64,000 bases of DNA from an uncultured SAR116 cluster alpha proteobacterium (GTDB lineage: Bacteria > Pseudomonadota > Alphaproteobacteria > Puniceispirillales > Marisalimonadaceae), in contig CACCZR010000004.1 in NCBI GenBank assembly GCA_902550555.1, positions 1 through 64,000 on the forward strand. The letters run 5' to 3'. This document shows positions 17,307 through 33,241 of this stretch, piece after piece; within the stretch, counting starts at the first letter, position 1, and each line of letters opens with the position of its first letter. A program made the position numbers and the translations under genes. A model generated the notes under the pieces. The model was given only the letters and a program-made list of their open reading frames with translations, was not told the DNA's origin and made no database searches.

Positions 17307-17436
17307 GCTAATCTCATTTAAATTAATTTTAAAATATTAAACAAAATGAATACATAAATCAAATTCATAGATATTAATTTAAAATTTAATAGTAAAGATT
17401 ATCCAGTACAAAAATTTAAAGTTCAAAAATTGTAAA

Positions 17437-18237
17437 TTACTTTTTTGGTTTAAACTTGTTAATAAAATCCAATTCTTCTGATGTAATATACATGTCATGA
17501 TATTGAACTTTAAGACATCCTGTACAAACACCTATAAAATCATTTGGAGAATATCTTTTTATAGTGTCATCAATTAAAATAGCATGATATAGTTGTTTCA
17601 TACCTGATACATTGATTTTACATTTTTGACATGTCCATTTTTTATTAGATTTTGCCGCTTCAAGTATTCTAGGAAAATCATTAGGTAAAGTTTTTAAAAA
17701 TTGCGATGTTGTAAAATCACTAAATAATTCTCTTTCTATAGAGAACATTTGCTTATGAAACTCTAAAACATTAAATTGATCTATTATTATTCTCCTAGAC
17801 CAATCAGCCGCCTTTACAAAATTATTCCAGTTTGTTTTTTTAAGACATAAGCGACACGGTATAAAATTATTATTTTCACTTTTTTTCTTAATATCTAATT
17901 TTTCAGATTCAGGTAAAATTAAAGTAGCACTTGATTCATAATTATTTAAATGATCTATGAATTGTGAGCAATTTGAAAAATGAAATATGATCTCATCATT
18001 TTGGTCTAAATTTTTAAAATAAATAGCAACAAAATTATTTTGATAAAATGTTAAACCTGCGAAAAAATCAATTTGAAGATTTTCTATTGTATCTAACGTG
18101 CCATCTGTTTTAAATTTTTTTCTTGTAGAGGCTATCTTAGATTTATTATTTACAAAATGATATCTAAAGTTTAGTTCAGCTCCAACTTGTTTCAAAGCAG
18201 CATTTAATTTACTAAAATTAGCATTAATTTTTACCAT
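17437..18237 (-). CDS. Zinc-ribbon / degenerate HNH-like protein of a Zorya-like operon
   Basis: 266 residues, not recognised as a whole. Three CxxC pairs are seen at 128/131, 203/206 and 238/241. From about 200 to 250 the layout WTCQKC...LYH...SPNDF...CTGC...YH resembles the zinc-ribbon HNH nuclease fold. The paired catalytic histidines expected after LYH are Ile-Leu (220-221), and the CH after the last cysteine pair is CL. That alignment is from memory and is inference. It overlaps the zorB-like gene by 14 bp, so it is the third gene of a coupled operon. In type II Zorya the third protein, ZorE, carries an HNH nuclease. Here it may be an inactive DNA- or motor-binding relative, or a new effector. 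Confidence 0.6.
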   Translation of the reverse strand: MVKINANFSKLNAALKQVGAELNFRYHFVNNKSKIASTRKKFKTDGTLDTIENLQIDFFAGLTFYQNNFVAIYFKNLDQNDEIIFHFSNCSQFIDHLNNYESSATLILPESEKLDIKKKSENNNFIPCRLCLKKTNWNNFVKAADWSRRIIIDQFNVLEFHKQMFSIERELFSDFTTSQFLKTLPNDFPRILEAAKSNKKWTCQKCKINVSGMKQLYHAILIDDTIKRYSPNDFIGVCTGCLKVQYHDMYITSEELDFINKFKPKK

Positions 18238-18967
18238 TTTTTTTTAATTCGCTTTTTATAAAATTAACTTTTTCAGTTTCATTTAAAACATATCTAAATT
18301 CAACTCTTCTTGATTTTATAGAATTCTCAGAACCATCTATATTTTTAATAAGTGATCTAGATGAAAGCCCAGACGCACTTACTTTATCAAAAGCCCAGTT
18401 AATTTCTTTTTCGGATAAATTAAATTTTGTTAAAGAATTTAATGATTCATTCAAAACAGAAATTGTTCTTTCTTGAGATAAAACCATATTTTTTATGTAA
18501 GCTATTTGATTAGTTTCATCTTTCCACTCACTTGATGTATGTCCCTCTATCCTAATTTCAGATACAAGTGAACCAAATTTAGATAAAACCTTTATGTATC
18601 TAGGAAAAAAGGCATTAATAATAGTTTTAAATCTATCGCTTAATTCAAAATTACTTTTTGAAAACATTACATCAGGAGCATTAAACCTTATTAAATTTTC
18701 CTCCGGTATGATTTCAAGTTGCCATTCCTTTTTTTCTTGATCAGTAAATTCATCTTTTAATTTTTCGTCAATATCATTTTCTAAATTATCTGTATAAGAT
18801 AAATAATTTAAAACATAGTCTTGTGTGCCGACTACTTCAGGAGCTTTCTCTCTGATAAAACCAATTGAAATAAATAAAAAAATTATCATCAATCCAGCCA
18901 TTAAGTCTGAATTTGATAACCAAACAGAATTATCAATATCTCCTTTTTTAGAACCTAAAAATTTCAT
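18224..18967 (-). CDS. zorB: ZorB-like OmpA/MotB-domain stator protein
   Basis: 247 residues. One N-terminal membrane helix starts in SNSDLMAGLMIIFLFI, with Asp21 placed where MotB and ZorB carry the ion-binding aspartate. A linker leads to a periplasmic OmpA/MotB peptidoglycan-binding domain (about 85-230) with EGHTS (141-145), SQERTISVL and SRRVEFR (219-225). In Zorya, ZorB forms the rod and anchor of a proton-driven motor with ZorA. It overlaps the zorA-like gene by 4 bp (ATGA type) and the zinc-ribbon gene by 14 bp. A plain MotB or TolR role is less likely, given the long partner tail and the island setting. Confidence 0.8.
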   Translation of the reverse strand: MKFLGSKKGDIDNSVWLSNSDLMAGLMIIFLFISIGFIREKAPEVVGTQDYVLNYLSYTDNLENDIDEKLKDEFTDQEKKEWQLEIIPEENLIRFNAPDVMFSKSNFELSDRFKTIINAFFPRYIKVLSKFGSLVSEIRIEGHTSSEWKDETNQIAYIKNMVLSQERTISVLNESLNSLTKFNLSEKEINWAFDKVSASGLSSRSLIKNIDGSENSIKSRRVEFRYVLNETEKVNFIKSELKKNGKN

Positions 18968-20160
18968 CTACTTGTTTTACTTCTATTTGCTAATTCTATT
19001 AAACTTCTCAAACTTGTTACAAGTGGTTGATAATCCTTAACCAACTGTTCCGATAAAGATCCCAAATGTGCTCCCATTACTTCAATGGCTTTTTCCAACT
19101 CATTAGTCATTTCATTATCTAATTTTTGTAGTTTTCCTGAAACATCTGCAATATCTTTTGATAGTGTATTAGTTAATTGTTTTAGACTTGTTTGTAATGT
19201 AGGAATAGCATTTTCAGCGTCTTCCCGAAGTTTAGATAATACGTCTAGTGTTTTTTCGGTCTGCTTCCTTTCTTTATTAATTGTTTGAATAACATTACCA
19301 ACAGGAGTTAACATTTTTGGAATATAATCTAATTTTGCATGAATTGTTTCGACAGTTTTTTCATGTTGAACAATTAAATTATTAGCTAAATCTATTGCTT
19401 TTTTTGTCTGATCTAATTCAGTTAAGTATGTTGATTGCCATTCTAAAAGTTTTTCAAGTCCTGAGTTGAATTTTTTAAAATTTTCGCCAAATTGTTCTTC
19501 TATTTTTGAATTAAAATCTTTAATGACACTTTCAATAGCTTTAATAAGTTGTTCAACAGTACTTTCACCAAGTGATGATGTGAATTCTGTTAATTTAATT
19601 TCCATATCTCTAATGCCTTGTTCAATTTTTAAAAGGTTTTCATTTTGGTTTTTAAATTGAGCATAAAAATCTTCTTCAGAAATAGTATCTTCTTGAACTA
19701 TTTCTGGTTGAACAAAACTAATGAGTTTAACAATAGCACTTCCAACCATGCCTACTATACTTGTAGAAAAAGCTAATTTTAATCCATCAAGTAAAATTGG
19801 TAAGCTTAAATCAATATTTCCTGGATCAAATTCACCAAGACCTTTGAAAATGCCAAGGAATGTTCCTACCAAGCCTAAAGCTGGTAATAATGATGGAAGA
19901 TAAGTTGTAAAATTGAGTACTTTTTTATTTTGAGTTATAAATGGCAACCATACTCCAAAAAATGTAAGAAAATACAAAAAAATTAAATAAAAACCAACAA
20001 ATTTATCTTCTTCACCAGAGACAATTAATTGGCCAATATAATCCACATTAATTAATTCATTTCTAAAATCATTCCAAAATATAAACGGTAAAAAAAATAG
20101 AAATGGTACTAGAGTAAACTCTATAATTTTATTAATTAATTGTAACAATTTGCTGAACAT
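18964..20160 (-). CDS. zorA: ZorA-like MotA/ExbB-family motor protein with long tail
   Basis: 398 residues. Four membrane helices lie at about 12-30, 54-75, 88-108 and 126-149. The third and fourth (PSLLPALGLVGTFLGIF and LAFSTSIVGMVGSAIV) carry the MotA/TolQ/ExbB channel signature. Residues about 150-398 are an almost unbroken charged helical tail, as in ZorA, whose cytoplasmic tail is proposed to pass the phage-infection signal to effectors. It is the first gene of the leftward trio. Start at 20160 leaves 71 bp to the divergent gene. ExbB or TolQ would lack this tail and usually sit beside tonB or tolR. Confidence 0.8.
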   Translation of the reverse strand: MFSKLLQLINKIIEFTLVPFLFFLPFIFWNDFRNELINVDYIGQLIVSGEEDKFVGFYLIFLYFLTFFGVWLPFITQNKKVLNFTTYLPSLLPALGLVGTFLGIFKGLGEFDPGNIDLSLPILLDGLKLAFSTSIVGMVGSAIVKLISFVQPEIVQEDTISEEDFYAQFKNQNENLLKIEQGIRDMEIKLTEFTSSLGESTVEQLIKAIESVIKDFNSKIEEQFGENFKKFNSGLEKLLEWQSTYLTELDQTKKAIDLANNLIVQHEKTVETIHAKLDYIPKMLTPVGNVIQTINKERKQTEKTLDVLSKLREDAENAIPTLQTSLKQLTNTLSKDIADVSGKLQKLDNEMTNELEKAIEVMGAHLGSLSEQLVKDYQPLVTSLRSLIELANRSKTSR

Positions 20161-20170
20161 TTTTATCTAT

Positions 20171-20184
20171 TTTTTGTACAAAAA
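20171..20184. promoter_or_regulatory. Perfect palindrome between divergent genes
   Basis: TTTTTGTACAAAAA reads the same on both strands. It lies in the 71 bp gap between the zorA-like gene and the divergent 336-residue gene, 11 bp from the first and 47 bp from the second start. It is a candidate operator for joint control. It could also be a chance palindrome in AT-rich DNA. Confidence 0.35.
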
Positions 20185-20231
20185 TTCACCAATATGATAC
20201 ACTTAATGAAAATTTTTGAAAAGATATTTAA

Positions 20232-21242
20232 ATGCAAGATCCTTTTGGTGGAATTAAAGGTAGAGAAATTGAGTCATTGTCAGGTTTTGCAATTGACAAA
20301 GAAGAAGTTCTTCGCGAACTTCAATATTCAATAGATTTACTTGATGAAAAAAAAATTGTTAAAAAAACATTTTTAGAAAAATTAAGACAAAAAAATCTTG
20401 GAATAAAAGAAGCTGACGAAAGAGCTTTATTCTGGAATCTAATGAAGGGTACTGATGATGAGTATGCACAGGTAAATTTAAGGTGGTCTAATAAAAATAT
20501 AAGATCAATTTATGGTGTGCCTTTTAAATCTATTAAAGTTGCTTTAAATGGTTTAAAAGCATTTTATAATCAAATTAATGTAAAAAAACCAAATATAGAT
20601 CATCCAGATGTATTAGAATTTTATAACTTAAGTCAACAAAATTATCCTGATTTACCAAAACTTACTCCAAATAATGAAAACGAAATTACAGATGATTTTT
20701 TAGAATTAGATCCTTTTGCAGGAGTAAGAGGTGTAGACATTTACAAAAAATTTAATGATTTAAAAAAAGATAAGGATAAGACATTACTAGAGTTAGATTA
20801 TTCCATTGAATTTTTAGATCAATTAGAACTACCAAAAGGAAGAAGAGAAAAAAAATTCATTAAAAAGCATCCTAAATTTCTAACTTTCACATTTAAAACA
20901 TCAGAACATTATTTAAATGTCCATTTTTGGTGGATAGGTACAATTGTTAGAACTATAAAAAATGTTGAGTTAGGAAGAGCAAGATTGGCTCTAGCCTCGC
21001 TTAAAAAATTTGTACAAGATATTGACGTTGAATTTCCAGACTTAGAAAATGAAGATATTAATGAAATTTATATGATCACAAAAAAGAAACATAGACCTGG
21101 ACAGCTAAAAAATTCAAAAGATGAAATTAAACCAGAGTCTGAAGGTGGGATGAGTTATTGGTCAACAGTAACTCATAGATGGGTATTACCAAAATTAGAT
21201 AAACATACTAAAAAATATATCCCCCCCAAAAAAAATTTATAA
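20232..21242 (+). CDS. Unknown protein of two internal repeats, divergent from Zorya-like operon
   Basis: 336 residues, not recognised. It is made of two related halves: DPFGGIKGREI (3-13) recurs as DPFAGVRGVDI (159-169). ELQYSIDLLDEKK recurs as ELDYSIEFLDQLE, VNLRWSNKNIRSI as VHFWWIGTIVRTI, and ALNGLKAFYNQINVKKPN as ALASLKKFVQDIDVEFPD. A basic tail of about 35 residues follows. There is no signal peptide or membrane segment. It is acidic and basic in patches, probably cytoplasmic. It shares a short divergent promoter region with the zorA-like gene, so joint regulation is plausible; a role in the same system is inference. Downstream is decayed island DNA. Confidence 0.75.
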   Translation: MQDPFGGIKGREIESLSGFAIDKEEVLRELQYSIDLLDEKKIVKKTFLEKLRQKNLGIKEADERALFWNLMKGTDDEYAQVNLRWSNKNIRSIYGVPFKSIKVALNGLKAFYNQINVKKPNIDHPDVLEFYNLSQQNYPDLPKLTPNNENEITDDFLELDPFAGVRGVDIYKKFNDLKKDKDKTLLELDYSIEFLDQLELPKGRREKKFIKKHPKFLTFTFKTSEHYLNVHFWWIGTIVRTIKNVELGRARLALASLKKFVQDIDVEFPDLENEDINEIYMITKKKHRPGQLKNSKDEIKPESEGGMSYWSTVTHRWVLPKLDKHTKKYIPPKKNL

Positions 21243-21413: not shown

Positions 21414-21453
21414 GCGCTCGAAGCTCAGCTGGATAAAGCACTAGACTACGAAT
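21414..21453 (+). pseudogene. Relic 5' half of tRNA-Arg
   Basis: The 40 bases match 30405-30444 of the intact tRNA-Arg(ACG) with two differences: one at the first base after the acceptor strand, one breaking the D stem. Similarity stops just after the anticodon loop begins its 3' side. The 3' half is absent, so no functional tRNA can form. The break lies inside the 49 bp segment used as attachment core at the intact gene, as expected for a displaced attachment-site half. Confidence 0.85.
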
Positions 21454-21771: not shown

Positions 21772-23571
21772 TTAAACTTTTTCAATCCAAAATTGATACA
21801 TATATGCAAAACTATTTTTGAATTTATTTTCAAATTCATCCCACTTAGTAAGATCGTATATAAAATCACTTGACTGATAATGATCTATAAATTTGTCAAC
21901 AACATTTGCAACATTTTCAAATCCACAAAATTTTAAACCTAGTTTGCTTAACATTTTATCAATTTTACTAATTGTAAATTGATGTTCCATTTCATGACAA
22001 ATTAAATCTTTAAATTCACTAGTTTTGTAAAAGTCGGACCAACATATAAAATTATTTAATTTAGAATAATCATCAATAATTTTATCTCTAAAAATTCTCA
22101 AATTTTCAATATTATTTAATAGATAATTTTTCTTAGCTTGTTCTTGAAAGTTACTAATACTTGATCTTCCTATTTTACTATAAAGTGAAATCTTCATTAA
22201 TCCATTTTTATTAAGAGAATTATATAATTTTTCGAGCCCCTTAATTGGCTCTTTCATATGATGCAACACTCCATTGCATAAAATCATATCAAAATTTTTG
22301 TTTAGTTTATCAATATTTAAAATGTCACAATGAAATAATTCTGCATTATTGATTTGATACTCATTACATTTTCTTAAAGCATAAGCTATACTAGATTTAC
22401 TTATATCAATTGCAGTTATATGTACATTTGAGAACATACTGCCTCTATCTACAATTTCCTTTCCAGTCCCACAACCAGCAATCAAAATATTATGAATTTT
22501 TGACTTATCAAATATTTTATTATTATAATCTAAATTAAATGACTTAATAAAATTTACTATATCAGTCTTTTGTAAATAAGTGTCAGAGTAAATCCATTGT
22601 GGATAAGGAAATTTCTCATACTGTTCCTTTACCTTTATAGTTGTTTGATTATTAAAACTTGAAATTGTTTTTATGCTATTCCTTAATCTTTTTTCATTAA
22701 GGTTATTTGTTACTGTAATCTTTTTTAATTTTTCAGTAATGTTATTAAAATTTATTGAATTGTAAAAAATAAAATCTACTAGTTTTGAGTACATGCCTAA
22801 ACAAACATATTCTAAGTCATTTATTTCACAATCTAATTTCAGATTATCAACAAGGTTACCTTTTAATTTTTGAATTTGTTTTTTTTCTTCTAACGTCTCA
22901 CTCCAAATATATTCATTTAAGTATGAATTTATTGCCAAATTAGTTGAAAGTTGTAATATTCCAACTTTGTTTTTAATTTTTTGTCTGTTAAATAATATTG
23001 ATTTCCTTAAAATTTTTAAAAATTTTTCAAAATGAATGTTACACACAACACACTCATCAATACATAAATTTAATAAATTTAAATTAGCTAGTTTATCCAA
23101 ATCATTAGCATTAATTTTGGAATTATCATTTACTAATTTAGATTTAATCTTTCTAAATAACTCGGTCTTTAGCAAATATTCAGCAGTCTTAATAACTAAA
23201 TTAGTTAAATTATGATTACCTAAATATTTTTTATTACTGAGCAATAATTCAAATCCCTCGGAGATATCAAAATACTTATGAAAATTTGAAAAATATTTAT
23301 CTATATCAATTTCAATTAAAAGAGAATAAAGATTTTCAAATTTAATCTCATTAAATTTATCTAATTCAGCTGCAAGCTTAAAATAATAAAATGCACTTGG
23401 AATATCATTTAATTCTTTAAATACATTACCGATAAATGATATTGTTTCAACTTCACTTGAATTATTTTTTAATATTTTCAACGCCTCTTGCAAGGCTCCA
23501 TGAAAATCTTTTTTTTGATAAAGCGCATTCATTAACATTTTGTTAATTTTATTATTATCAATATGATTCAT
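21772..23571 (-). CDS. TPR protein with C-terminal SAM-dependent methyltransferase
   Basis: 599 residues. The N-terminal 15-80 region shows TPR-like helices (ALQEALKIL, FIGNVFKEL, AFYYFKLAAELD). A middle helical part of no clear family follows, with a run of cysteines near 170-180. Residues about 330-500 form a class I methyltransferase: motif I ILIAGCGTGKE, ITAIDISKSSI, and motif IV region FDMILCNGVLHHMKEP. Such TPR-methyltransferase fusions are common in SAR11-type genomes, but their substrates are unknown. It stands alone within the island, between two relics, at low GC like its neighbours. It is not a recognisable DNA methylase: there is no NPPY or PC motif. Confidence 0.8.
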   Translation of the reverse strand: MNHIDNNKINKMLMNALYQKKDFHGALQEALKILKNNSSEVETISFIGNVFKELNDIPSAFYYFKLAAELDKFNEIKFENLYSLLIEIDIDKYFSNFHKYFDISEGFELLLSNKKYLGNHNLTNLVIKTAEYLLKTELFRKIKSKLVNDNSKINANDLDKLANLNLLNLCIDECVVCNIHFEKFLKILRKSILFNRQKIKNKVGILQLSTNLAINSYLNEYIWSETLEEKKQIQKLKGNLVDNLKLDCEINDLEYVCLGMYSKLVDFIFYNSINFNNITEKLKKITVTNNLNEKRLRNSIKTISSFNNQTTIKVKEQYEKFPYPQWIYSDTYLQKTDIVNFIKSFNLDYNNKIFDKSKIHNILIAGCGTGKEIVDRGSMFSNVHITAIDISKSSIAYALRKCNEYQINNAELFHCDILNIDKLNKNFDMILCNGVLHHMKEPIKGLEKLYNSLNKNGLMKISLYSKIGRSSISNFQEQAKKNYLLNNIENLRIFRDKIIDDYSKLNNFICWSDFYKTSEFKDLICHEMEHQFTISKIDKMLSKLGLKFCGFENVANVVDKFIDHYQSSDFIYDLTKWDEFENKFKNSFAYMYQFWIEKV

Positions 23572-23932
23572 ATATTTTTTTTTAATTTATAATTTAGATA
23601 TTAGTTTTTTCATAATTATGCTTTTCACATTGCTAAAAATTGGTATTTATAAGAATTACTTCAAAAGAAATATTCATCCTGCACCAATCAATAGTTTTTT
23701 TAGAATGCTGCATTGTAGTGAAGTAGCAAATATTGTACCAGAATTGATTTAAGAACTGCTTAATCCTCTTTTTTTTGGAGAGTTCAAAATTATCCTATTA
23801 ATATTGTCAAAATTCGCTGAAATGCATTGATGAAGTTAAGGTAGGTGCATTTTAGTAGTTTTGTTTGATTGAATCTAATTATCCAGTTTTTGATCTTAAA
23901 ACCATTTATACCCAATTTTATTTAATGATTTG
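23572..23932. other. 361 bp without an intact gene
   Basis: It holds a relic of a WYL regulator gene (listed separately) and AT-rich flanks. A frame ahead of that relic reads HCSEVANIVPELI before its stop, but it does not match the intact WYL protein clearly. No promoter, hairpin or attachment site is evident. Confidence 0.6.
23741..23790 (+). pseudogene. Relic of the 3' part of a WYL regulator gene
   Basis: These 50 bases match 30041-30090 of the intact WYL gene at 47 positions. In frame they read ELI-stop-ELLNPLFFGEFKI, while the intact gene reads ELIYELLNPLYFGEFKI, so a Tyr codon became TAA. Outside the 50 bp the similarity is lost. It shows that a second copy of this regulator gene once lay here. 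Confidence 0.85.
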
Positions 23933-26900
23933 CTAATCAATATCCAACTTTGGAAGCGATTTGATGATCTTAATTGTTTCTAAAGAGACAGTTATTACTC
24001 GTTGGAACAGTTCTAAAGGATAAGCGGGGTTGTTCATTGTCTCATTTGCATAATCGTTTGCATCATTTATAATGCCACTTGATTTATCAGTCCTAACGCA
24101 CTGCCTATCCATCACCCACTCAAGCGCAGATCTTCCACATAACTTATATTCGTAAGCATCAAGAGGTATTCCCTCAATTGTTATGTTTTTATTATATTTA
24201 ACAATTTTTTTATTTTCTTTTTTTTCAAACCTCATTTTTTCAACTCGGTAAAAACTTTTAAAATCAATATTTGAAATTAGTTCGAGGCTACCTTCTCGAA
24301 AATTAACAGGATATGGTTTAACTTCTTCAAAATTGAGGTGCAAGTATATCAATTTTTCTCCTGCCTCTCGAAACTCATTAAACATTTCAAAACTTTTAAC
24401 AAGAGGTATTCTTGGCATCTCTTTAGTCAAGTTATTTGCGTATCTTGATCTATAATCATCAGAATGAAGTAAACCATATATATACTGGAGAAAATTTAAC
24501 TTTTTGATTGTAGTAGTTTTATAAGTTTCATTGATGTTAAATAATAATTTATCGTTAATAACACTCTCAGTTAAGTTTAATGAATCTTTATTTGAAAAAA
24601 GGTCATTTTCATTAACTTTTTGTGTGATCATAGTAGGAAAACATTGTGCACCCGCTTCCAAAAAATTTAAATCTACTACATGTTTCGAAACAAAAGGGGA
24701 AAGAGCATTTTTTGCCCCAATTCCATTGACACAAATTACAAGATTATTTGATAATTTATCTGAAAAAATTCTATTCATCTGATATTGCATTGCATTCATT
24801 TGCTTAGAGAAATAAAAATGTTGAAAACAAAAAGGTCTATACAATGCTTTTACTATACAATGACTTTCAAATTTATATTTTTTATAACGTTTTAGGTCTT
24901 GAAATGCATTTCTATTCCAAGACATTAATTTTGGATCAACTTTAACAAATTTTTCTGGAAGCAATGTGCTATTGCTTTCTCTATAATTATCAACTTCTTG
25001 ATTATAATATTCAATTGCTGATTTAATGTTAATACCAACTTTCTTCTTTGAAAAGTTATAACACCAAGCATCACGACCCGAAGCAACACCAAGCGAGTAC
25101 AAATTAAATATGCAGTTTTCTTGTTCTTTGGATTTACTACCTAGTGGTAAATAGTTTTTAAATGATTTATCTCCTTGATTAATCCAATCATTTTGATCAT
25201 CTGGTTTTATTAGTTTAAAATCACCTTCGTTTTCAATACCTTTTATAGATTTATAATTTCTAATCTTTGATAATTTTTCATCCTTTTTAAGATAATCACC
25301 TATATCAGCATAAAAGATTTGCCCATCTTTACTCTGATTTTTTTGCTTAACAAGAATAATAATTGTTACACCAACCCTCACATTAAAGATATTTCCACCT
25401 TCTTTACGTGCCATTTCACCAGACACTCTACTATTCCCACGTAAATTAAATACATAAATTTTTCCGAATTCTTTAGATAAACACTTTCTAAATCCGTCAG
25501 TAGCATTACCATCAATCCAACCTGAATTTGTAATAAAACCTATAACACCTTCTTGATCAACTCTATCTGCAGCCCATCTAAATGCTCTGATATAACTATC
25601 ATAAAGATCTTGTCTGTTAGTAGCACTCGATTCATTTACATAAGAATCTTCTATTCTTTTGTCTAAATTTTGATATTTTAAGTTTGCGGCATTGTCATTT
25701 GCTGTAGTCTGACCCGCAGAGTAAGGGGGGTTTCCAATTATAACTGTAATATCTCTTTTCTTCTGATTTGTTCTCCTTTCTGAATTGTCAGGAAGAAGAT
25801 CAGCAATCATATCTCTATCTTGTTCATAAAGTTGGAAAGTGTCCGTTAGAACCATTCCGTCAAATGATTGGTACTGGTTTTCCTTTACCAAATCGTCATA
25901 AACTGCTTCGATGTTGATGCAGGCAATATAGTAGGCGAGTAAAATAATCTCATTTGCGTGTATTTCTGATTTGAATTTCTTCCGAATTTGATCCTTCGAC
26001 AAAATGCCAGATTGCAATAGGCGGGAAATGAAAGTTCCCGTTCCCGAAAATGGGTCAAGAATATGAACACCTTCATTGCCGAGAGAGGAACCAAATTCTT
26101 CCTGCATTACATCTTCGACCGAATGGATAATAAAGTCGACCACCTCAATAGGTGTATAAACAATACCTAATTTCTGAGTCATTAACGGAAATGCATTTCT
26201 AAAAAAACGATCATAAAGTTCAAGAATAAGTGTTTGCCGTCCTCTTGAAGTTATAATGTCAGCGGAACGTCGCTTAACACTATCATAGAACTTTTCAAGA
26301 GTCCGAGTTTCAGTATCGATTTTATGGTCATAGATCTGTGAAAGGACTGTTTCCATTGCTTTTGAAACTGCATTTTCAGTAGTAAAACGGTTACCTTGAA
26401 ACAAAGTATCGAATACAGGACGAGTAATTATATGTTGAGCAAGCATCTCCACAGCGTCTGTTTCAGAAATATCAGGGTTAAGATCATCCCTAATCTCATC
26501 AACAAACTGCATAAATGAGGCACGCTCCTTAGTACCTGAATTAAGAACAACAGAGTTAATTCGGGTAATATGTTGTTGAGCAATCTTGGCAATATCACTT
26601 GCCCAGTTTTCCCAGTAATCGCGTGTTCCACACTTATCAACAATTTTTGCTTTAATTGCCTGCGAAAGATCTGTCAGAGTAAAAGATAACTGCTTTGGTT
26701 CTTTGTCATCTTCATCTTCGGTCTCGTCTTCACCGCCTAGATTTGTATCTGTTTCGTCCTCGCTGTCTTCTTTCTTTTTAGCCTTTGGCTTAATATCTTC
26801 AACTACTGCTGTTGTTGCCTCGAGTTCAGAAGTAGATGTGCCATCAATTATCTCAATACGATCTGAAACATCTTCACCCAAACCAATGCGATTGATAGTG

Positions 26901-28813
26901 CTATCAAATCTCTCATCATGCGCTCTTAGGGCATTCAGGATCTGCCAAACGACTTTATAACGTTCATTGTCATTGAGTGCTTTTTCTGCAGAAACACCAG
27001 GTGCAACTGTAATTGGCAGAATTACATAACCAAGTTTTTTGTCGTCTGCCTTTCGCATTACACGTCCTACTGATTGAACAACATCAATCTGACTTTTTCT
27101 TGGATGAAGAAACATAATTGCGTCTAGAGCAGGAACGTCAACACCCTCTGATAAACAACGAGCATTTGTCAAAACACGACAAACATTCTCACCTGCCTCC
27201 TCCTTTAACCAGTTGAGTTTTTCGTTTCGTTGCTCGGCATTGAAAGTGCCGTCGACGTGAAACAACTCAACCTCAAGGTCTGTTTTAGTTTCTTCAGATA
27301 CTTTTTCTTGAGAGATATAATCCTTTACAACACTGGAAAACTCAGCAGAGAACATCTGGGAAGTTTTGATATTTTGACAGAATGCTAATGCCCGTTTCAT
27401 AGGCACAGAGTCTTCAGCAGTGCTATCTTTCTTATTGTTCATTCCTACTTTTGCAAGTGCTTTGTAACAACCAACCATCTTAGTTGCATCATCGAGTTGT
27501 AATTCTGCTCCTTCCGTAAAACTACGTTGTACCCTGTCTGAAACTAGTTGTTCATCCATCATTAAGACGACAACCTTGTAATCAGTTAAGTGACCATTTT
27601 CGACCGCCCAACCAAAACCACGATGGAAAAGGTTTTTTCCAAAAGTATTTTCGTCATCCATTGATGCTAAGGCAACCTCGCCATCATCCGCTTTCTTTTT
27701 AGCAGTTTCTCCAAATATTCTAGGAGTTGCAGTCATATAAAGACGTTTCTTGCCTCTTACATTTTCGTCACTATGAATTTTAACAAAGTTTGACTCGTCA
27801 TCACCAACAAGTGTAGCCCCAGTAGTGCGATGTGCTTCATCACAAACTATTAGATCAAAATCACCAAGTTTATACTCATATTGCGATTTAGAAATTACAT
27901 CAATTGAATGATAAGTTGAAAACACCACTGTCATTTTTGATTTGTCAGCTCGATTTATCTGTTCTGATAGTTTGCGAGCATCTGTAGTTGCAGGAAATGC
28001 CAAATCGTTAAGATTAACTTCTATTTGATCATCAGATGCTTTCTTTTTTCCAACCTTATCATCTGAACATGCAGAGAATGCAATAAAGTCCTCCTTTGCG
28101 TCATTCTTCCATTCTCGAACTGTCTGAGACATCAATGCAAGCGAAGGTACCATGTAGAGAACAGTTTTACCTACACCCGCAACCTCTTCTGCTATGCGTA
28201 AACTGGTAAATGTCTTTCCAGTTCCGCATGCCATAATCATCTTACCTCTATCATCTTCTGCGAGTCCATCACGTACTGCATTCAAAGCTTTAATTTGATG
28301 ATCTCTAAGTTCTTTTTTGGAGCGCAAACGAACTGTTCCGTTACTGATGTAGGACGACCAATCGATCCGACTTTCTTCAAGTTCAGATAACTGAATACGA
28401 ATATATTCCTGATTTATATTATCAAAGACCGACTGAGCATGTTTGCCAATTGGTTGTGTAGATGTGTCTATCAGCATCAACCGTGTGAAATCATTTGTAG
28501 ATGATGCCGATATGAAAGAGTCAAGATCTGACTTAGATATGGAGTGCTCTGCTTCATAGAACTTACATTGAACTGCGCAGTATCCTTCTTCATCACGCAA
28601 CTTTGCTACCAAATCTATTCCAATATCTTTGTTGGAGTATCCCTCACGGTTTCTTGCCCAGTCTTCATAATGCCAAACTTCGCTATATTGCTGAGTTTGC
28701 GTTGCATCATTTTCAAGAAATACCTTTGCAAGTCGCTCAAATGCATTGCCCAACTCTGTGCTGTTGGATGCTTGCTCCCTAATCGTTGATAGTGCTTTTT
28801 GTAATGCAGACAT
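23933..28813 (-). CDS. Type ISP single-chain restriction-modification enzyme
   Basis: 1626 residues. The order is: an Mrr-like nuclease with Asp67 and the QCK element (82-84); a superfamily 2 helicase with GTGKT (197-201), DEAH (325-328) and QSVGRVMRK near 580; an acidic linker near 670-710; a gamma-type N6-adenine methyltransferase with DPFSGTGTF near 921 and NPPYSAGQ near 1025; and a C-terminal target-recognition region. This is the LlaGI/LlaBIII layout, in which one polypeptide methylates its site, translocates and cuts. All catalytic motifs look intact. Methylation protects the host, so the gene is probably active. The nuclease-to-methylase part is clearly richer in GC than the last ~550 residues. 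Divergent from a WYL regulator. Confidence 0.92.
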   Translation of the reverse strand: MSALQKALSTIREQASNSTELGNAFERLAKVFLENDATQTQQYSEVWHYEDWARNREGYSNKDIGIDLVAKLRDEEGYCAVQCKFYEAEHSISKSDLDSFISASSTNDFTRLMLIDTSTQPIGKHAQSVFDNINQEYIRIQLSELEESRIDWSSYISNGTVRLRSKKELRDHQIKALNAVRDGLAEDDRGKMIMACGTGKTFTSLRIAEEVAGVGKTVLYMVPSLALMSQTVREWKNDAKEDFIAFSACSDDKVGKKKASDDQIEVNLNDLAFPATTDARKLSEQINRADKSKMTVVFSTYHSIDVISKSQYEYKLGDFDLIVCDEAHRTTGATLVGDDESNFVKIHSDENVRGKKRLYMTATPRIFGETAKKKADDGEVALASMDDENTFGKNLFHRGFGWAVENGHLTDYKVVVLMMDEQLVSDRVQRSFTEGAELQLDDATKMVGCYKALAKVGMNNKKDSTAEDSVPMKRALAFCQNIKTSQMFSAEFSSVVKDYISQEKVSEETKTDLEVELFHVDGTFNAEQRNEKLNWLKEEAGENVCRVLTNARCLSEGVDVPALDAIMFLHPRKSQIDVVQSVGRVMRKADDKKLGYVILPITVAPGVSAEKALNDNERYKVVWQILNALRAHDERFDSTINRIGLGEDVSDRIEIIDGTSTSELEATTAVVEDIKPKAKKKEDSEDETDTNLGGEDETEDEDDKEPKQLSFTLTDLSQAIKAKIVDKCGTRDYWENWASDIAKIAQQHITRINSVVLNSGTKERASFMQFVDEIRDDLNPDISETDAVEMLAQHIITRPVFDTLFQGNRFTTENAVSKAMETVLSQIYDHKIDTETRTLEKFYDSVKRRSADIITSRGRQTLILELYDRFFRNAFPLMTQKLGIVYTPIEVVDFIIHSVEDVMQEEFGSSLGNEGVHILDPFSGTGTFISRLLQSGILSKDQIRKKFKSEIHANEIILLAYYIACINIEAVYDDLVKENQYQSFDGMVLTDTFQLYEQDRDMIADLLPDNSERRTNQKKRDITVIIGNPPYSAGQTTANDNAANLKYQNLDKRIEDSYVNESSATNRQDLYDSYIRAFRWAADRVDQEGVIGFITNSGWIDGNATDGFRKCLSKEFGKIYVFNLRGNSRVSGEMARKEGGNIFNVRVGVTIIILVKQKNQSKDGQIFYADIGDYLKKDEKLSKIRNYKSIKGIENEGDFKLIKPDDQNDWINQGDKSFKNYLPLGSKSKEQENCIFNLYSLGVASGRDAWCYNFSKKKVGINIKSAIEYYNQEVDNYRESNSTLLPEKFVKVDPKLMSWNRNAFQDLKRYKKYKFESHCIVKALYRPFCFQHFYFSKQMNAMQYQMNRIFSDKLSNNLVICVNGIGAKNALSPFVSKHVVDLNFLEAGAQCFPTMITQKVNENDLFSNKDSLNLTESVINDKLLFNINETYKTTTIKKLNFLQYIYGLLHSDDYRSRYANNLTKEMPRIPLVKSFEMFNEFREAGEKLIYLHLNFEEVKPYPVNFREGSLELISNIDFKSFYRVEKMRFEKKENKKIVKYNKNITIEGIPLDAYEYKLCGRSALEWVMDRQCVRTDKSSGIINDANDYANETMNNPAYPLELFQRVITVSLETIKIIKSLPKLDID

Positions 28814-29170: not shown

Positions 29171-30163
29171 GTGGCAACAAAATTTAGAAGTTTGATAATT
29201 TTTGCATCAGAATTGAAATCATCTCGCAATGGAATGACTAAAAAAGAAATGCTTAAAAGATGTCAAGAATTAGGATTATTAGGAAGAGGATCGATTAGAA
29301 CTATTGACAGATGGATAGAAGAATTAAAACTTAATTTTAACTTTGAAATAACCTCGCATTTATATGCAGATGATAAAAACCAAAGAAGATATAAAGTAAC
29401 AAATTTTCCAAATGAGATGTTTAGTTTGTCTCAAGAAGAACGAACAGGATTAGAAATATTAAAAGAGAGTTTAAGTGATGAAAATCATAAAAATGCGATC
29501 AGTAAAGTTTTAGCAACTCAACAACCTCTCTCAAACCAAGTATTAAATGATTTAAGCGAATTGATCGATAATACTTCTTATGCTTCTCAAATTGCTCCTC
29601 GATCAAAAGTTGATAATCAGTATATGCAAATTGTTGAAGAAGCAATCAAAGGTTATACAAAAATTAGGTTTAAATATCGATCAGCAAATGCCGAAAAATC
29701 GACCATACAAGAGGTATCTCCAATCGGACTAATCTTTAGTCGTTTTGGTTATTTAGTTGCTTTCTATCGGTCTAAAATCCCTATTGTTTACCGATTAGAT
29801 TTACTTGAAAAAGTTCAAGCAACTGACAAACCATCAGATCGAGATGAAGAGTTTAATTTTCAAAAATGGAGTGAACAATCATTTGGAATTTTTCATGGAG
29901 ATAAAACTTTTCGAGCAGAAATTCGCTTTTCAAAAAAGGTTGCTCATAGTGTTAAAAATATAAACTTTCATTCAAGTCAGCAAATGAGAGTTAACAAAGA
30001 TAAATCAATAACATTGATTGTTATTTGTAAAGGAATGAGAGAATTGATTTATGAACTGCTAAATCCTCTTTATTTTGGAGAGTTCAAAATCATTCAACCA
30101 GTAGAGTTACAAAAAGCATATCAAGACTACCTATTAAGTTCTTTAGATGCGATTGAGGTTTAA
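29171..30163 (+). CDS. WYL-domain transcriptional regulator
   Basis: 330 residues. An N-terminal winged helix-turn-helix (about 15-75, including KKEMLKRCQELGL and SIRTIDRWIEEL) is followed by a WYL domain (about 150-225; VSPIGLIFSRFGYLVAFYR, then YRLDLLEKV) and a C-terminal extension ending near the PLYFGEFKI segment. WYL proteins of this layout (BrxR, CapW) repress defence operons until a nucleic-acid or nucleotide signal releases them. The start is GTG, with AGGA 6 bp upstream. It is divergent from the ISP restriction-modification gene and has a perfect inverted repeat before its start, so autorepression and control of the ISP gene are likely by inference. A relic copy lies at 23741. Confidence 0.88.
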   Translation: MATKFRSLIIFASELKSSRNGMTKKEMLKRCQELGLLGRGSIRTIDRWIEELKLNFNFEITSHLYADDKNQRRYKVTNFPNEMFSLSQEERTGLEILKESLSDENHKNAISKVLATQQPLSNQVLNDLSELIDNTSYASQIAPRSKVDNQYMQIVEEAIKGYTKIRFKYRSANAEKSTIQEVSPIGLIFSRFGYLVAFYRSKIPIVYRLDLLEKVQATDKPSDRDEEFNFQKWSEQSFGIFHGDKTFRAEIRFSKKVAHSVKNINFHSSQQMRVNKDKSITLIVICKGMRELIYELLNPLYFGEFKIIQPVELQKAYQDYLLSSLDAIEV

Positions 30164-30280: not shown

Positions 30281-30404
30281 TTTGTGATAGATAAAGAGAT
30301 GTTTGATGATTTTTTTAGTCAATTTGATGTGTAAAAGTGGTGGCACTTCTGGTGGTACCTAGATTTTGACTAAAAATGAAGCTAAAAAAGTCAATAAAAA
30401 CAAT

Positions 30405-30481
30405 GCGCTCGTAGCTCAGCTGGATAGAGCACTAGACTACGAATCTAGGGGTCAGGGGTTCGAATCCTCTCGAGCGCACCA
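30405..30481 (+). tRNA. tRNA-Arg (anticodon ACG)
   Basis: Acceptor arms GCGCTCG and CGAGCGC pair perfectly. The D arm is GCTC...GAGC and the anticodon stem CTAGA/TCTAG encloses CTACGAA with anticodon ACG at 30439-30441. The T arm AGGGG/CCTCT encloses TTCGAAT, with a mismatch at one end. CCA is encoded at 30479-30481. It reads CGN arginine codons after deamination to inosine. Its 3' 49 bases are repeated at 33193-33241, so it is the attachment site of an inserted element and remains intact. Confidence 0.97.
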
Positions 30482-30483
30482 CA
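30435..30483 (+). repeat. attL core: 3' part of tRNA-Arg
   Basis: This 49 bp segment, from the anticodon stem through the CCA end plus two bases, is identical to 33193-33241. A long identical 3' tRNA segment flanking a few kilobases is the hallmark of insertion by a tyrosine recombinase that restores the tRNA. Confidence 0.92.
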
Positions 30484-30551
30484 ATTTGGCTTCCACGCTC
30501 ACATTTCCGAAATCTTTTTTTAAGCATTAAAAGAAAATTTGTTTTAAATGG

Positions 30552-30574
30552 GGTGCTACTATTGGTGCTACTAT
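30552..30574 (+). repeat. Left arm pair of 11 bp repeats
   Basis: GGTGCTACTAT occurs at 30552-30562 and 30564-30574, 12 bp apart start to start. The same pair is near the right end of the element. They are candidate arm-type sites for a recombinase or its directionality factor. A related GGTGGCACT / GGTGGTACC pair lies upstream of the tRNA at 30338-30359. Confidence 0.55.
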
Positions 30575-30675
30575 ACTATTTTGTTTACTAGTAAAATTTA
30601 TGAGCAAGATTTCTATTTTATTACAAATATTTGATATCTAAAATGTAATAAAGAAATTTAAATAAATCTCTCTAA

Positions 30676-30695
30676 TAGTCAATAATTTTGACTAA
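30676..30695. promoter_or_regulatory. Inverted repeat upstream of the 326-residue gene
   Basis: TAGTCAA (30676-30682) and TTGACTA (30688-30694) are perfect inverted arms around 5 bp. A further TTGACTAA is at 30709-30716. The 10-mer TTTTGACTAA occurs here (30686-30695), before the tRNA (30364-30373) and near the right end (33021-33030). It may be a binding site for the AlpA-like protein. Confidence 0.4.
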
Positions 30696-30754
30696 TTTGA
30701 TAATTTAGTTGACTAATATGTAATTTAGTCATATTTTAATATTAAGAGTAAACT

Positions 30755-31735
30755 ATGCCTAATATTATTTTGACTGAAGATGATCTAAAAAAGATGGAAC
30801 CTGAATTAAGAGGTCAGTTATTAGATTTTCTTAGTCAAGCTTTTGTTAAAAAAAATTGGCCAAAAATTCCATCAGATACAATACAAGACAATTTGCTAGA
30901 ATTTCAAAGACCAAATATAATAAGTATTGAAGGTGCGTGTTCAATTTTCTTTGGTTTAAATAAAAATTCCAGAGAATTCATTAAAATTCTAGTTAAAGAT
31001 ATTTATAGAACAAGTGACAAAAAGGGATATGACAAAGAAGACATGTCCTCTTTATTAAATTTAAGTGAAGCATCCCTTAATGGTATAGTAGGTTCAATTA
31101 ATAGGCGCTTTATCTATCGCTTCGATAGAGATGCATACGATGTTTATGGTAATCGAGATGAGATATATCCTATCAAAAGTTCTATTGAAAAAAATTTACT
31201 AAAGCTAATTAACTACACAGCAACTCCAGGAGAAAGCAAATATTGGCTTTCTCATCATAAAGATACATATTGCAATTTTGAAATCGCTATAAAACTTTTT
31301 GAGTTGAACCCAGATTTTGAAATTTATGACTATAAGGTAATAATACCAAACAAAAAATCTAAAGATAATATTGAGTTTTTTGTTAATAACGCCTCAATTT
31401 CTTCTTTTGATGAAAGAAAAGCTCATGTGGATTTTTATATGGATCATGAAGGTTTGGATCTTAATACTGAAAATGCAAAACTAGGTTTTAGGGACAATAT
31501 GGTCAAGTATTGGGCATTAAACAACGCAGGAATAAAAACACACATGTGTACAAACCATGTTTGTAATTCAATACAAGTAATTAAAAATGAAATTCAATAC
31601 AAAAAAATTGGTCCTGCAATTTTTGATTACAATAAAATGAAATTAAATTCAAAAACTGAAACCAAAGTTTATAAAAATATAAAGTTTAATATAGAGGATG
31701 TAAAAATTGAAAAATACCTGAAGAAGACATCATAA
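30755..31735 (+). CDS. Unknown protein of the tRNA-Arg element
   Basis: 326 residues, not recognised. It has no membrane segment or signal peptide. The N-terminal third has helices that could bind DNA (SIEGACSIFFGL, DMSSLLNLSEASLNGIVGSIN) followed by RRFIYRFDRDAYDV. The C-terminal part is mixed alpha/beta with a CTNHVCNS segment near 270. It is first in the element and is followed, after a strong hairpin, by the AlpA-like gene. Possible roles are replication initiation, antirepression or defence; none can be proved from sequence. Confidence 0.75.
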   Translation: MPNIILTEDDLKKMEPELRGQLLDFLSQAFVKKNWPKIPSDTIQDNLLEFQRPNIISIEGACSIFFGLNKNSREFIKILVKDIYRTSDKKGYDKEDMSSLLNLSEASLNGIVGSINRRFIYRFDRDAYDVYGNRDEIYPIKSSIEKNLLKLINYTATPGESKYWLSHHKDTYCNFEIAIKLFELNPDFEIYDYKVIIPNKKSKDNIEFFVNNASISSFDERKAHVDFYMDHEGLDLNTENAKLGFRDNMVKYWALNNAGIKTHMCTNHVCNSIQVIKNEIQYKKIGPAIFDYNKMKLNSKTETKVYKNIKFNIEDVKIEKYLKKTS

Positions 31736-31769
31736 ATTATCTTGTTAAATCTCCATGTAAGACAAGAAA

Positions 31770-31792
31770 TAGGGGGAGAAAAATCTCCCCTA
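31770..31792 (+). terminator. Strong hairpin before the AlpA-like gene
   Basis: GGGGAGA at 31773-31779 pairs with TCTCCCC at 31784-31790 around a 4 base loop. Outer T-A and A-T pairs lie beyond one bulged G. No T run follows on this strand (TAATTAAATAAAG), so it may be a weak terminator, an RNA stabiliser or a leader element for the AlpA-like gene 24 bp downstream. Confidence 0.5.
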
Positions 31793-31815
31793 ATTAAATA
31801 AAGAAAGGAAAAACA

Positions 31816-32052
31816 ATGGAACAGCAAAATATAAAAATTGAAAATGAATTTACTAGAAACACAGTATTCTTAACTCAGCCTGAAATAAGTGATTGGTTAA
31901 AGATCTCTAAATCTACAGTTTATCGATGGGTACAGGAAGGGAATTTTCCAAAACCAGTAATGATAGGTAAGCCAGAAAAAAATGGAACATCAAGATGGGT
32001 TGAAGAAGAAGTAAAGGAATGGCTTTCTCAAAGACCAAGAGAAAAATTTTAA
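31816..32052 (+). CDS. AlpA-like helix-turn-helix regulator / excisionase
   Basis: 78 residues. After a polar N-terminus, TQPEISDWLKISKSTVYRWVQEGNFPKPVMIG is the MerR-like helix-turn-helix of the AlpA family, and SRWVEEEVKEWL is its conserved C-terminal helix. AlpA proteins activate or assist excision of integrated elements, so this suggests the element can be excised if an integrase is supplied. A GAAAGGAAA ribosome site lies 8 bp before the ATG. The nuclease gene follows after 19 bp and is probably co-transcribed. Confidence 0.9.
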   Translation: MEQQNIKIENEFTRNTVFLTQPEISDWLKISKSTVYRWVQEGNFPKPVMIGKPEKNGTSRWVEEEVKEWLSQRPREKF

Positions 32053-32071
32053 TCTTTTTAATCCCTAAAAT

Positions 32072-32941
32072 ATGTTTAAGAAAGGCTCAAATTATTCAAG
32101 AAATGATGTATCTAAAATTACCTTAGGAACAGATAAACCCAAAGGTGGTGATTGGGACACGGGGTATGTAAGAGTTAATGATGATTTGTTAATATTTATG
32201 AATATTGGCGTATCAGGTGTTACTGGACATGATTTCAATAACTCTTACGACACAGAAAGTGAATTAATAACTTGGTTTGGAAAACCAAACACCCATTCAA
32301 ATCAACCTTTAATGAAAAGAATAATTAATGGAAGTATAAACTGCCATTTCTTCGCCCGATGGGATAATAAACTGACTGACTTTGTGTATTTAGGTATTGG
32401 AAATGTTATATCTTTTGAAGATGGCGCAGAAGGAAAAAACTCTCTTGGGAAAGTAGTACCAACAATTAAATTTGTAATATCATGCAAAGATGCTCCGAAC
32501 ATAATAATTGATGAAGAAAATAAAAGTATTAATTCTACGTTTGCTTTAGAAAAACATTTAGAAGAATTTATTGTAGATAACTGGAATAATATAAGCTTAG
32601 GTAAAAATTATTATAGATGTGAGAAAGAAGTTGAAGGTAAAAGAAAAAAGTTCAGAACTGATACTGGCGAAATTGACATATTTGCAAAAAGTAAAGATGA
32701 AAAAGAATTTTTAATCATTGAATTAAAAAAAGGTAGAGCAAGTGATAAAGTCATAGGTCAAATTCAGAACTATATGGGTTTTGTTAAAGAGGAATTAGCA
32801 AATAATGGAGAAATTGTTAAAGGTATAATCATCGCTCTAGAAGATGATCAAAGAATAAGAAGAGCATTAAAAGTTACAAATAATATTGAATTCTATAGAT
32901 ACAAAATTAATTTCAACCTAGAAAAAGTAATTACCTCATAA
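32072..32941 (+). CDS. Predicted PD-(D/E)XK nuclease with DUF3427-like N-terminus
   Basis: 289 residues. Residues about 5-135 (YSRNDVSKI, WFGKPNTHSNQP, FVYLGIGN) resemble the DUF3427 domain found attached to helicases and restriction proteins. That match is from memory. Residues about 155-285 match the NucS/DUF91-like nuclease: TDTGEIDIFAK gives the acidic residue, and IIELKKGRASDKVIGQIQNYM gives the E-x-K and following helix. The catalytic set looks complete. Such nucleases without a methylase partner are often modification-dependent restriction enzymes. It is co-transcribed with the AlpA-like gene in the tRNA element. Confidence 0.75.
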   Translation: MFKKGSNYSRNDVSKITLGTDKPKGGDWDTGYVRVNDDLLIFMNIGVSGVTGHDFNNSYDTESELITWFGKPNTHSNQPLMKRIINGSINCHFFARWDNKLTDFVYLGIGNVISFEDGAEGKNSLGKVVPTIKFVISCKDAPNIIIDEENKSINSTFALEKHLEEFIVDNWNNISLGKNYYRCEKEVEGKRKKFRTDTGEIDIFAKSKDEKEFLIIELKKGRASDKVIGQIQNYMGFVKEELANNGEIVKGIIIALEDDQRIRRALKVTNNIEFYRYKINFNLEKVITS

Positions 32942-33106
32942 AAAGTATGAGTTTAAACTTAATTTAAGGATTATTTAGTATACCCAGACAAGCATTACTA
33001 GAACCCAGATATCTTGCTTATTTTGACTAAAATTTATTAAAATAAATTAGTAATAATTTTCACTAATTTAAGAGACAGAAAGTCCTTAATAAATGTTTCA
33101 AAATAT

Positions 33107-33129
33107 GATGCTACTATAGGTGCTACTAT
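33107..33129 (+). repeat. Right arm pair of 11 bp repeats
   Basis: GATGCTACTAT (33107-33117) and GGTGCTACTAT (33119-33129) keep the 12 bp spacing and orientation of the left pair, about 65-85 bp inside the right attachment repeat. Confidence 0.55.
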
Positions 33130-33192
33130 AAATGTTAAAAAAATTATAGTTTAAAAACAATGGTTTATACAGAATTTTTTGCCAGATCAACC

Positions 33193-33241
33193 GACTACGA
33201 ATCTAGGGGTCAGGGGTTCGAATCCTCTCGAGCGCACCACA
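33193..33241 (+). repeat. attR core: duplicated 3' part of tRNA-Arg
   Basis: Identical over 49 bp to 30435-30483. Bases before 33193 do not match a tRNA 5' half, so this is not a second tRNA gene. Together with 32942-33192, which has only the arm repeats and TTTTGACTAA at 33021, it makes up a 335 bp stretch without genes. Confidence 0.92.

What the first reader, a model, noticed from the sequence alone, without database searches (positions are those of the whole stretch)
30405..33241. 2.76 kb tRNA-Arg element with no integrase
The 49 bp exact direct repeats define the ends. Inside are an unknown gene, an AlpA-like excision/regulatory gene and a nuclease gene. An element this small with an AlpA but no recombinase suggests movement by a helper integrase, like a satellite or cargo unit.
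Basis: partly seen in the sequence, partly recalled or inferred. Interest (0 to 1): 0.7.

Follow-up and report, generated by a model that had tools for sequence, protein, structure and literature searches.

The report
Integrase-less defence cassette at tRNA-Arg
A 2.76 kb piece of mobile DNA sits cleanly inside a tRNA-Arg gene of an uncultured bacterium; it carries a likely anti-phage nuclease but no enzyme of its own to move it, and relatives at the same site show the same ends around other genes, so it probably travels with borrowed machinery.

Summary
An intact tRNA-Arg(ACG) (30405-30481) and a displaced 3' part (33193-33241) share 49 identical bp and bound a 2758 bp element. It encodes an orphan 326-aa protein, an AlpA-like regulator and a NucS/YhcG-type PD-(D/E)XK nuclease, and no tyrosine integrase. 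Three congeners (G003, G004, G012) have the empty site. Two genomes of a sister genus (L056, L115) carry 2.77 and 2.51 kb elements with homologous right ends, different cargo and no integrase; exchanged tRNA 3' halves mark site-specific insertion. Both ends of the window element hold a matching pair of 12-bp direct repeats (GGTGCTACTATT/GGTGCTACTATA), as expected for integrase arm sites. The tRNA is a family-wide hotspot used by two integrase families, with further cassettes lacking an integrase on its 5' side; in the window these bring a type ISP restriction enzyme and a WYL regulator, next to a type II Zorya operon. No integrase with matching arm repeats was found, so the helper is inferred. 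Best filed as a cis-mobilizable (CIME-like) 'hitcher' carrying defence cargo. It is not a phage satellite by content. The accretion of small cassettes without integrase on both sides of one tRNA is the unusual part.

The parts
30405..30481 (+). intact tRNA-Arg(ACG); 5' half from the upstream side, 3' half carried by the element (attL-like junction)
   Evidence: ARAGORN; Rfam RF00005 68 bits
30435..30483 (+). left copy of the 49 bp core, from the anticodon loop to just past the tRNA 3' end
30552..30575 (+). left arm-like pair of 12-bp direct repeats GGTGCTACTATT GGTGCTACTATA
   Evidence: (5 matches in window against 0.45 expected); homologous left ends in L059 (z 10.6) and L055 (z 5.9)
30755..31735 (+). 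ORF1, 326 aa, orphan, function unknown
   Evidence: ORF; no family; no homologue in 136 genomes of the order, viral contigs (41), phages, plasmids or PDB
31773..31790 (-). short GC-rich stem-loop between ORF1 and the AlpA gene; terminator-like on the - strand (chance about 0.8 per region)
31816..32052 (+). AlpA-like helix-turn-helix protein, 78 aa: candidate excisionase and/or regulator
   Evidence: Phage_AlpA 1.2e-8; phrog_66 excisionase 1e-11; MAD1-like HTH
32072..32941 (+). 289-aa nuclease: N-terminal DUF3427-like region (inferred from a relative), C-terminal NucS/YhcG-type PD-(D/E)XK domain (D202, E217, K219, Q230 invariant)
33107..33130 (+). right arm-like pair GATGCTACTATA GGTGCTACTATA, same orientation as the left pair
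   Evidence: right end homologous to L056 (z 7.8) and L115 (z 8.9)
33193..33241 (+). right copy of the 49 bp core: displaced host 3' half of tRNA-Arg (attR-like)
   Evidence: empty-site alignment
30339..30359 (+). arm-like pair GGTGGCACTTCT GGTGGTACC upstream of the tRNA, right end of the upstream (A-type) cassette; 77-96 bp from the core, compared with 67-86 bp for the element's own right pair
21414..21453 (+). remnant 5' half of a second tRNA-Arg (2 mismatches in 40), left boundary of the upstream cassette(s)
21772..23571 (-). methyltransferase-like 599-aa gene, cargo of upstream cassette A1; same cassette alone in G002 (L052)
23740..23812 (+). fragment matching the 3' end of the WYL gene: probable scar of the A1 right end
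23933..28813 (-). type ISP (type IIG/I-like) restriction-modification enzyme, 1626 aa, cargo of cassette A2
   Evidence: Type_ISP_C 2.5e-94; PADLOC REase_MTase_IIG
29171..30163 (+). WYL-domain regulator, cargo of cassette A2
17437..20160 (-). type II Zorya genes (ZorE, ZorB, ZorA) between the phosphoribosyltransferase gene and the array

Best explanation
A site-specifically integrated cargo element that keeps its attachment ends but has no recombinase. A tyrosine integrase supplied by another element binds the paired GGTGCTAC arm repeats at both ends and recombines in the anticodon-loop core of tRNA-Arg(ACG). On insertion the element's own 3' half restores the tRNA, and the host's 3' half is displaced to the far end. 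The AlpA-like protein probably steers the borrowed integrase towards excision or controls the operon. The cargo nuclease, a PD-(D/E)XK enzyme that may sense modified DNA, probably protects the host against phages. Shown: insertion, junctions, empty sites, relatives with the same ends, absence of a tyrosine integrase. Inferred: arm-site function, helper supply, AlpA role, defence role.
For: Exact 49 bp repeat at tRNA-Arg. Empty sites: window flanks with the element left out align over 216/233, 235/257, 230/258 and 233/256 positions with G004, G012, G002 and G003; in G003, G004 and G012 the phosphoribosyltransferase gene lies only 229-241 bp upstream and DUF4174 follows at once. L056 and L115 share the right end (z 7.8 and 8.9), have 2765 and 2509 bp between cores, no integrase between them, and different cargo (2OG-Fe oxygenase, plus a Bmp protein in L056). 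In L056 the tRNA has GGGGTTCGAATCCT and the displaced core GGAGTTCGAATCTT, so 3' halves were exchanged. Arm repeats at both ends match 22/24; family I elements with an integrase at the same tRNA have analogous 11-bp repeats TTTGACACAGATTTGACACA at both ends. No PF00589 match in the window. Full-length nuclease relatives occur beside an integrase and D5 primase at tRNA-Arg(CCG) in G051 (L139) and beside a Prim-Pol/D5 gene in G091 (L140).
Against: No integrase with GGTGCTAC arms was found in 58 family genomes, in 32 integrase upstream regions, in 385 genomes of the class, or in viral contigs. No excised circle or junction read was seen (reads not available). The element may be a fixed relic that lost its integrase. 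Only tyrosine integrases were searched by profile. The MAG is 69% complete, so a helper could be missing from the assembly.
Confidence: 0.62

Rival explanations
1. Dead relic: an ordinary integrative element that lost its integrase by deletion and is now fixed; its ends are leftovers.
For: Elements with family I ends but no detectable integrase, 1.9 and 3.0 kb, exist at the same tRNA (L146, L149). No matching integrase was found anywhere.
Against: All three genes are open and compact; both arm pairs and the 49 bp core are almost perfectly kept; the same ends carry different cargo in another genus, also without integrase.
Confidence: 0.27
2. The cassette arrived by homologous recombination between conserved flanks (for example after DNA uptake), not by site-specific recombination.
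For: Flanks are conserved within the genus, and defence islands often turn over by flank recombination (general knowledge).
Against: Junctions fall exactly at the tRNA core; exchanged 3' halves in L056 and L115; empty sites precise to the base after the tRNA. Recent strain-to-strain spread by this route remains possible.
Confidence: 0.07
3. A phage satellite in the strict sense, packaged by a helper phage (for example the marine podovirus type that uses the same tRNA-Arg core).
For: A 41 kb IMG/VR podovirus-like contig carries the same core next to its integrase (L166). Nuclease relatives sit near satellite-like D5/Prim-Pol genes in L139 and L140. AlpA is common in satellites (general knowledge).
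Against: No primase, packaging, capsid or terminase gene in 2.7 kb; no relative of ORF1 or nuclease found in viral contigs, none of ORF1 in phages; no GGTGCTAC arm repeats seen next to the L166 core.
Confidence: 0.04

Closest known systems
cis-mobilizable elements (CIMEs) and accretion, as described for ICE-related islands and discussed for Dehalococcoides ssrA islands (PMC3146451)
   Same: Direct-repeat-bounded modules without integration or transfer genes, in tandem at one RNA gene beside modules that have an integrase.
   Different: tRNA-Arg and tyrosine-integrase-type arm repeats instead of ssrA and a serine recombinase; no conjugative partner seen; cassettes accrete on both sides of the tRNA.
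Hitcher genetic elements, including CALINs and MITEs (PMC11389934)
   Same: Mobility proteins lost, DNA sites kept, small size, recombinase from another element; the 5'-side cassettes often hold a single gene.
   Different: Sites are tRNA-core att sites with arm repeats, not attC or terminal inverted repeats; the target is one fixed tRNA.
Tycheposons of marine bacteria (described in PMC10872708)
   Same: Cargo elements tied to tRNA genes in marine bacteria with small genomes.
   Different: Those carry a tyrosine recombinase and are 4-200 kb; this has none and is 2.76 kb.
PADLOC candidate PDC-S02 / NucS-domain endonucleases
   Same: C-terminal PD-(D/E)XK domain, E 5e-61 to PDC-S02; 26 plasmid records with homologues, most of those listed annotated 'endonuclease NucS domain-containing'.
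   Different: N-terminal domain differs between relatives (DUF3427-like here, another type in L141/L142); defence role untested.

Membership tests
Cis-mobilizable element (CIME) | bounded by attL/attR-type direct repeats at a known integration site | tested here: met
   49 bp repeat at tRNA-Arg, empty sites in relatives
Cis-mobilizable element (CIME) | no integrase and no transfer genes | tested here: met
   PF00589 search; three ORFs scanned against Pfam and PHROGs
Cis-mobilizable element (CIME) | mobilised with, or by the integrase of, a related element sharing its att sites | tested here: inconclusive
   Elements with integrases share the core in relatives, but none with the same arm repeats was found
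Phage satellite (PICI, P4-like, PLE) | own integrase plus replication and packaging-interference genes | tested here: not met
Phage satellite (PICI, P4-like, PLE) | packaged in helper phage particles | not testable with these tools
   no reads or particle DNA; no viral contig hit
Integrative and mobilizable element (IME) | integrase and relaxase/oriT | tested here: not met
   neither among the three ORFs by Pfam; oriT not tested
Tycheposon | tyrosine recombinase next to tRNA, 4-200 kb cargo element | tested here: not met
   no recombinase, 2.76 kb; definition from PMC10872708
PDC-S02 / NucS-type nuclease family | PD-(D/E)XK catalytic residues conserved | tested here: met
   D202, E217, K219, Q230 invariant among five relatives
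PDC-S02 / NucS-type nuclease family | protects against phage | not testable with these tools
   needs a bench assay

The most novel reading that the evidence does not exclude
The 3'-side element and the single-gene cassettes on the 5' side are one family of gene-cassette-like units without integrase, sharing GGTG-type arm repeats at 12-bp spacing. An unidentified recombinase accumulates them on both sides of a single tRNA-Arg, 5' insertions supplying a new promoter and 5' half of the tRNA and 3' insertions a new 3' half: an integron-like array built on a tRNA instead of attI/attC.
Probability: 0.3. Interest if true: 0.75.

Novelty: new variant of a known kind. Interest (0 to 1): 0.5.

Why it matters
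Many defence islands have no clear means of moving (noted for E. coli in PMC10121019). Here the bounds, empty sites, same-ended relatives and arm repeats of such units are defined to the base, so 'how do islands without an integrase move' becomes testable: find or express the integrase that reads these arms. It also shows defence genes of several types gathered stepwise at both sides of one tRNA in a bacterium with a small genome.

Tried and rejected
Search for a helper by arm repeats: pattern scans of viral contigs (39, 82) and of 84,980 species genomes (40: one hit in Croceitalea, no tRNA in the 8 kb around it, taken as chance), of the order and family (32, 93) and of the class (119: the G408 hit lies in a peptidase-like gene, 121). 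Hits away from tRNA-Arg that I looked at were coding or chance, and the genome-wide number is about that of the reversed-pattern control, so only position next to the tRNA carries weight. 55 loci, mostly integrase loci, were fetched (95-97); in the 32 upstream regions scanned the repeats are TTTGACACA, TGTGTCACA, GGGGAAT and similar, none GGTGCTAC (98). A GGTGATG repeat at a DUF6538-like integrase (L274) overlaps its start and was set aside. Hits of L119 and L272 to the right end lie in permease and phoU-like genes. Similarity of the left end to the 5'-side cassettes was not above shuffles (z -1.0), and direct right-end homology between them is weak (z 1.5), so common descent of 5'-side and 3'-side cassettes rests on arm sequence and spacing only. 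AlphaFold without alignment gave useless models for ORF1 (pLDDT 31) and the nuclease (36), so no fold search was run. The Zorya genes could not be given a tRNA-core left boundary: no 5' half remnant near 17306-17437. Misassembly at the 49 bp repeat was considered; L056 and L115 show the same layout in separate assemblies with non-identical cores.
Full report
WHAT IS THERE. The window is contig C4 of a 1.6 Mb, 69% complete genome. A tRNA-Arg(ACG) gene at 30405-30481 is followed 2758 bp later by an exact copy of its last 47 bases plus two more (49 bp; 30435-30483 and 33193-33241). Between them are ORF1 (326 aa, no relative in any library or collection searched), an AlpA-like protein and a nuclease with a NucS/YhcG-type PD-(D/E)XK domain. 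A six-frame search of the genome for tyrosine integrases finds five, none in the window.

IS IT AN INSERTION? Yes. In G004, G003 and G012, same genus, the same tRNA lies 229-241 bp from the upstream phosphoribosyltransferase gene and is followed directly by the flank that in the window begins after 33241. The window with the element left out aligns over 216/233 (G004), 235/257 (G012), 230/258 (G002) and 233/256 (G003) positions.

RELATIVES OF THE ELEMENT. In a sister genus, L056 (G028) and L115 (G072) hold elements of 2765 and 2509 bp between two cores at the same tRNA. Their right ends are homologous to that of the window element (z 7.8 and 8.9 against dinucleotide shuffles). At the left end L056 shares the first 18 bases tested after the core (z 3.1), and left ends in L059 and L055 are homologous too (z 10.6 and 5.9). 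Cargo is different: a 2OG-Fe oxygenase, and in L056 a Bmp-family protein; L115 cargo was judged from DNA identity with L056 at the oxygenase. Neither has an integrase between its cores. In L056 the 3' half of the tRNA and the displaced copy differ (GGGGTTCGAATCCT against GGAGTTCGAATCTT), so the element brought its own 3' half: site-specific recombination upstream of these positions, in or next to the anticodon arm.

ARM-LIKE SITES. The element has GGTGCTACTATTGGTGCTACTATA at 30552-30575 and GATGCTACTATAGGTGCTACTATA at 33107-33130. Within 160 bp near each end the best 24-mer match is 22/24, against at most 19/24 in 60 shuffles. Elements of family I at the same tRNA, which have an integrase, carry TTTGACACAGATTTGACACAG near both ends. 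By this analogy, and by established knowledge of lambda-type integrases, the GGTGCTAC repeats are most likely arm-type binding sites. That is inference; no binding was tested.

THE HOTSPOT. In 58 genomes of the family the tRNA-Arg(ACG) core is used repeatedly. Family I elements (327-aa integrase next to the tRNA; for example L054, L057, L058, L059, L060, L062, L148, L154, L161, L162) and family II elements (DUF6538-like integrase; L058 second element, L063, L068, L146 second element, L147, L155, L156) occur alone or in tandem. The name DUF6538 is my recollection of the family and was not tested by profile. Two elements with family I ends have no detectable integrase (L146, 1927 bp; L149, 3000 bp). 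An IMG/VR contig of 41 kb with podovirus-type replication genes carries the same core next to its 296-aa integrase (L166); phages of HMO-2011 type, which infect SAR116 and Roseobacter, often have such integrases (PMC9038755). The assignment of L166 to that type, and of the host to the SAR116 group, is my inference and was not tested.

THE 5' SIDE. Upstream of the window tRNA lies another insertion: a 5' half of tRNA-Arg survives at 21414-21453 with its upstream flank. Comparable 5'-side insertions of 2.1-3.6 kb, mostly with one gene and no integrase, occur in L052, L060, L062, L063, L116, L155, L156 and L159; a tRNA 5' half remnant is seen at the left edge in L052, L062 and L116, and in gapped form in L060. 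The 165 bp before the tRNA is alike in these (alignment scores 118-230, window 330 to itself) and unlike in sister-genus genomes without the insertion (28-37). Most of these ends have GGTG-type repeats at 12-bp spacing, 77-96 bp before the core in the window. Empty-site genomes of the window's own genus keep this 165 bp, so there it is either native or the scar of a lost cassette. Recombination with the 5' part of a tRNA is known but rare (PMC6563490, citing Zhao and Williams 2002). Homology of the 5'-side and 3'-side cassettes beyond the arm motif was not shown.

CARGO. The array collects defence-type genes: type ISP restriction enzyme and WYL regulator, the NucS-type nuclease (PADLOC candidate PDC-S02), and next to them a type II Zorya set. 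Full-length or nearly full-length relatives of the nuclease (42-45% identity) lie in G051 (L139) with an integrase and a D5-type primase at a tRNA-Arg(CCG), and in G091 (L140) with a Prim-Pol/D5 protein. The N-terminal region of L140's copy matches DUF3427 weakly (6e-4, below Pfam's cut-off); L141 and L142 have the same nuclease domain behind a different N-terminal part. A sensor of DNA modification joined to a nuclease, as in type IV restriction, is a reasonable guess, not a result.

HELPER. No integrase with GGTGCTAC arm repeats was found. The helper is therefore inferred from kept ends and from relatives, and the possibility of a relic stays open.

COMPARISON AND VERDICT. By features the element meets the tested parts of a cis-mobilizable element (att-bounded, no integration or transfer genes; concept as discussed in PMC3146451) and of a 'hitcher' (PMC11389934). 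It fails phage satellite, IME and tycheposon on tested features. What is unusual is the family-wide set of very small cassettes without integrase on both sides of one tRNA and the defined, unclaimed arm repeats. I rate it a new variant of a known kind.

Noticed in passing
17437-21242: Type II Zorya genes (ZorA, ZorB, ZorE-like) plus an unknown 336-aa gene between the phosphoribosyltransferase gene and the tRNA-Arg array; no tRNA-core boundary found on its left.
   Followed up: partly
L166:13562-14547: IMG/VR podovirus-like contig with a tRNA-Arg(ACG) core of about 60 bp next to its integrase: a phage attP for this bacterial group.
   Followed up: partly
L139:5146-8971: tRNA-Arg(CCG) element in G051 with integrase, D5 primase-helicase and a full-length relative of the nuclease.
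   Followed up: partly
L146:6091-8018 and L149:4711-7711 (+ orientation): Elements with family I ends but no detectable integrase, 1.9 and 3.0 kb: non-autonomous derivatives at the same tRNA.
   Followed up: no
L155, L156, L159, L060, L062, L063, L116: Single- or few-gene insertions between the phosphoribosyltransferase gene and tRNA-Arg: TPR-like proteins, kinase plus sulfotransferase-like, adenylate cyclase-like (names by eye, not by profile).
   Followed up: partly
L055:7808-9601: Element left end with GGGGCAACATATGGGGCTAC repeats followed by a polysaccharide lyase gene and a similar neighbour; no distal core found.
   Followed up: no
L015 (own genome, contig C37): P4-type integrase next to tRNA-Ser with an AlpA-like gene and small genes: a fuller satellite-like element in the same genome.
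   Followed up: no
L052:9010-9056: A solitary tRNA-Arg core about 3 kb downstream of the tRNA in G002, inside an insertion that interrupts the conserved right flank.
   Followed up: no
window 23740-23812: WYL 3'-end fragment between the methyltransferase and restriction genes, suggesting the 9 kb upstream segment is two cassettes.
   Followed up: partly
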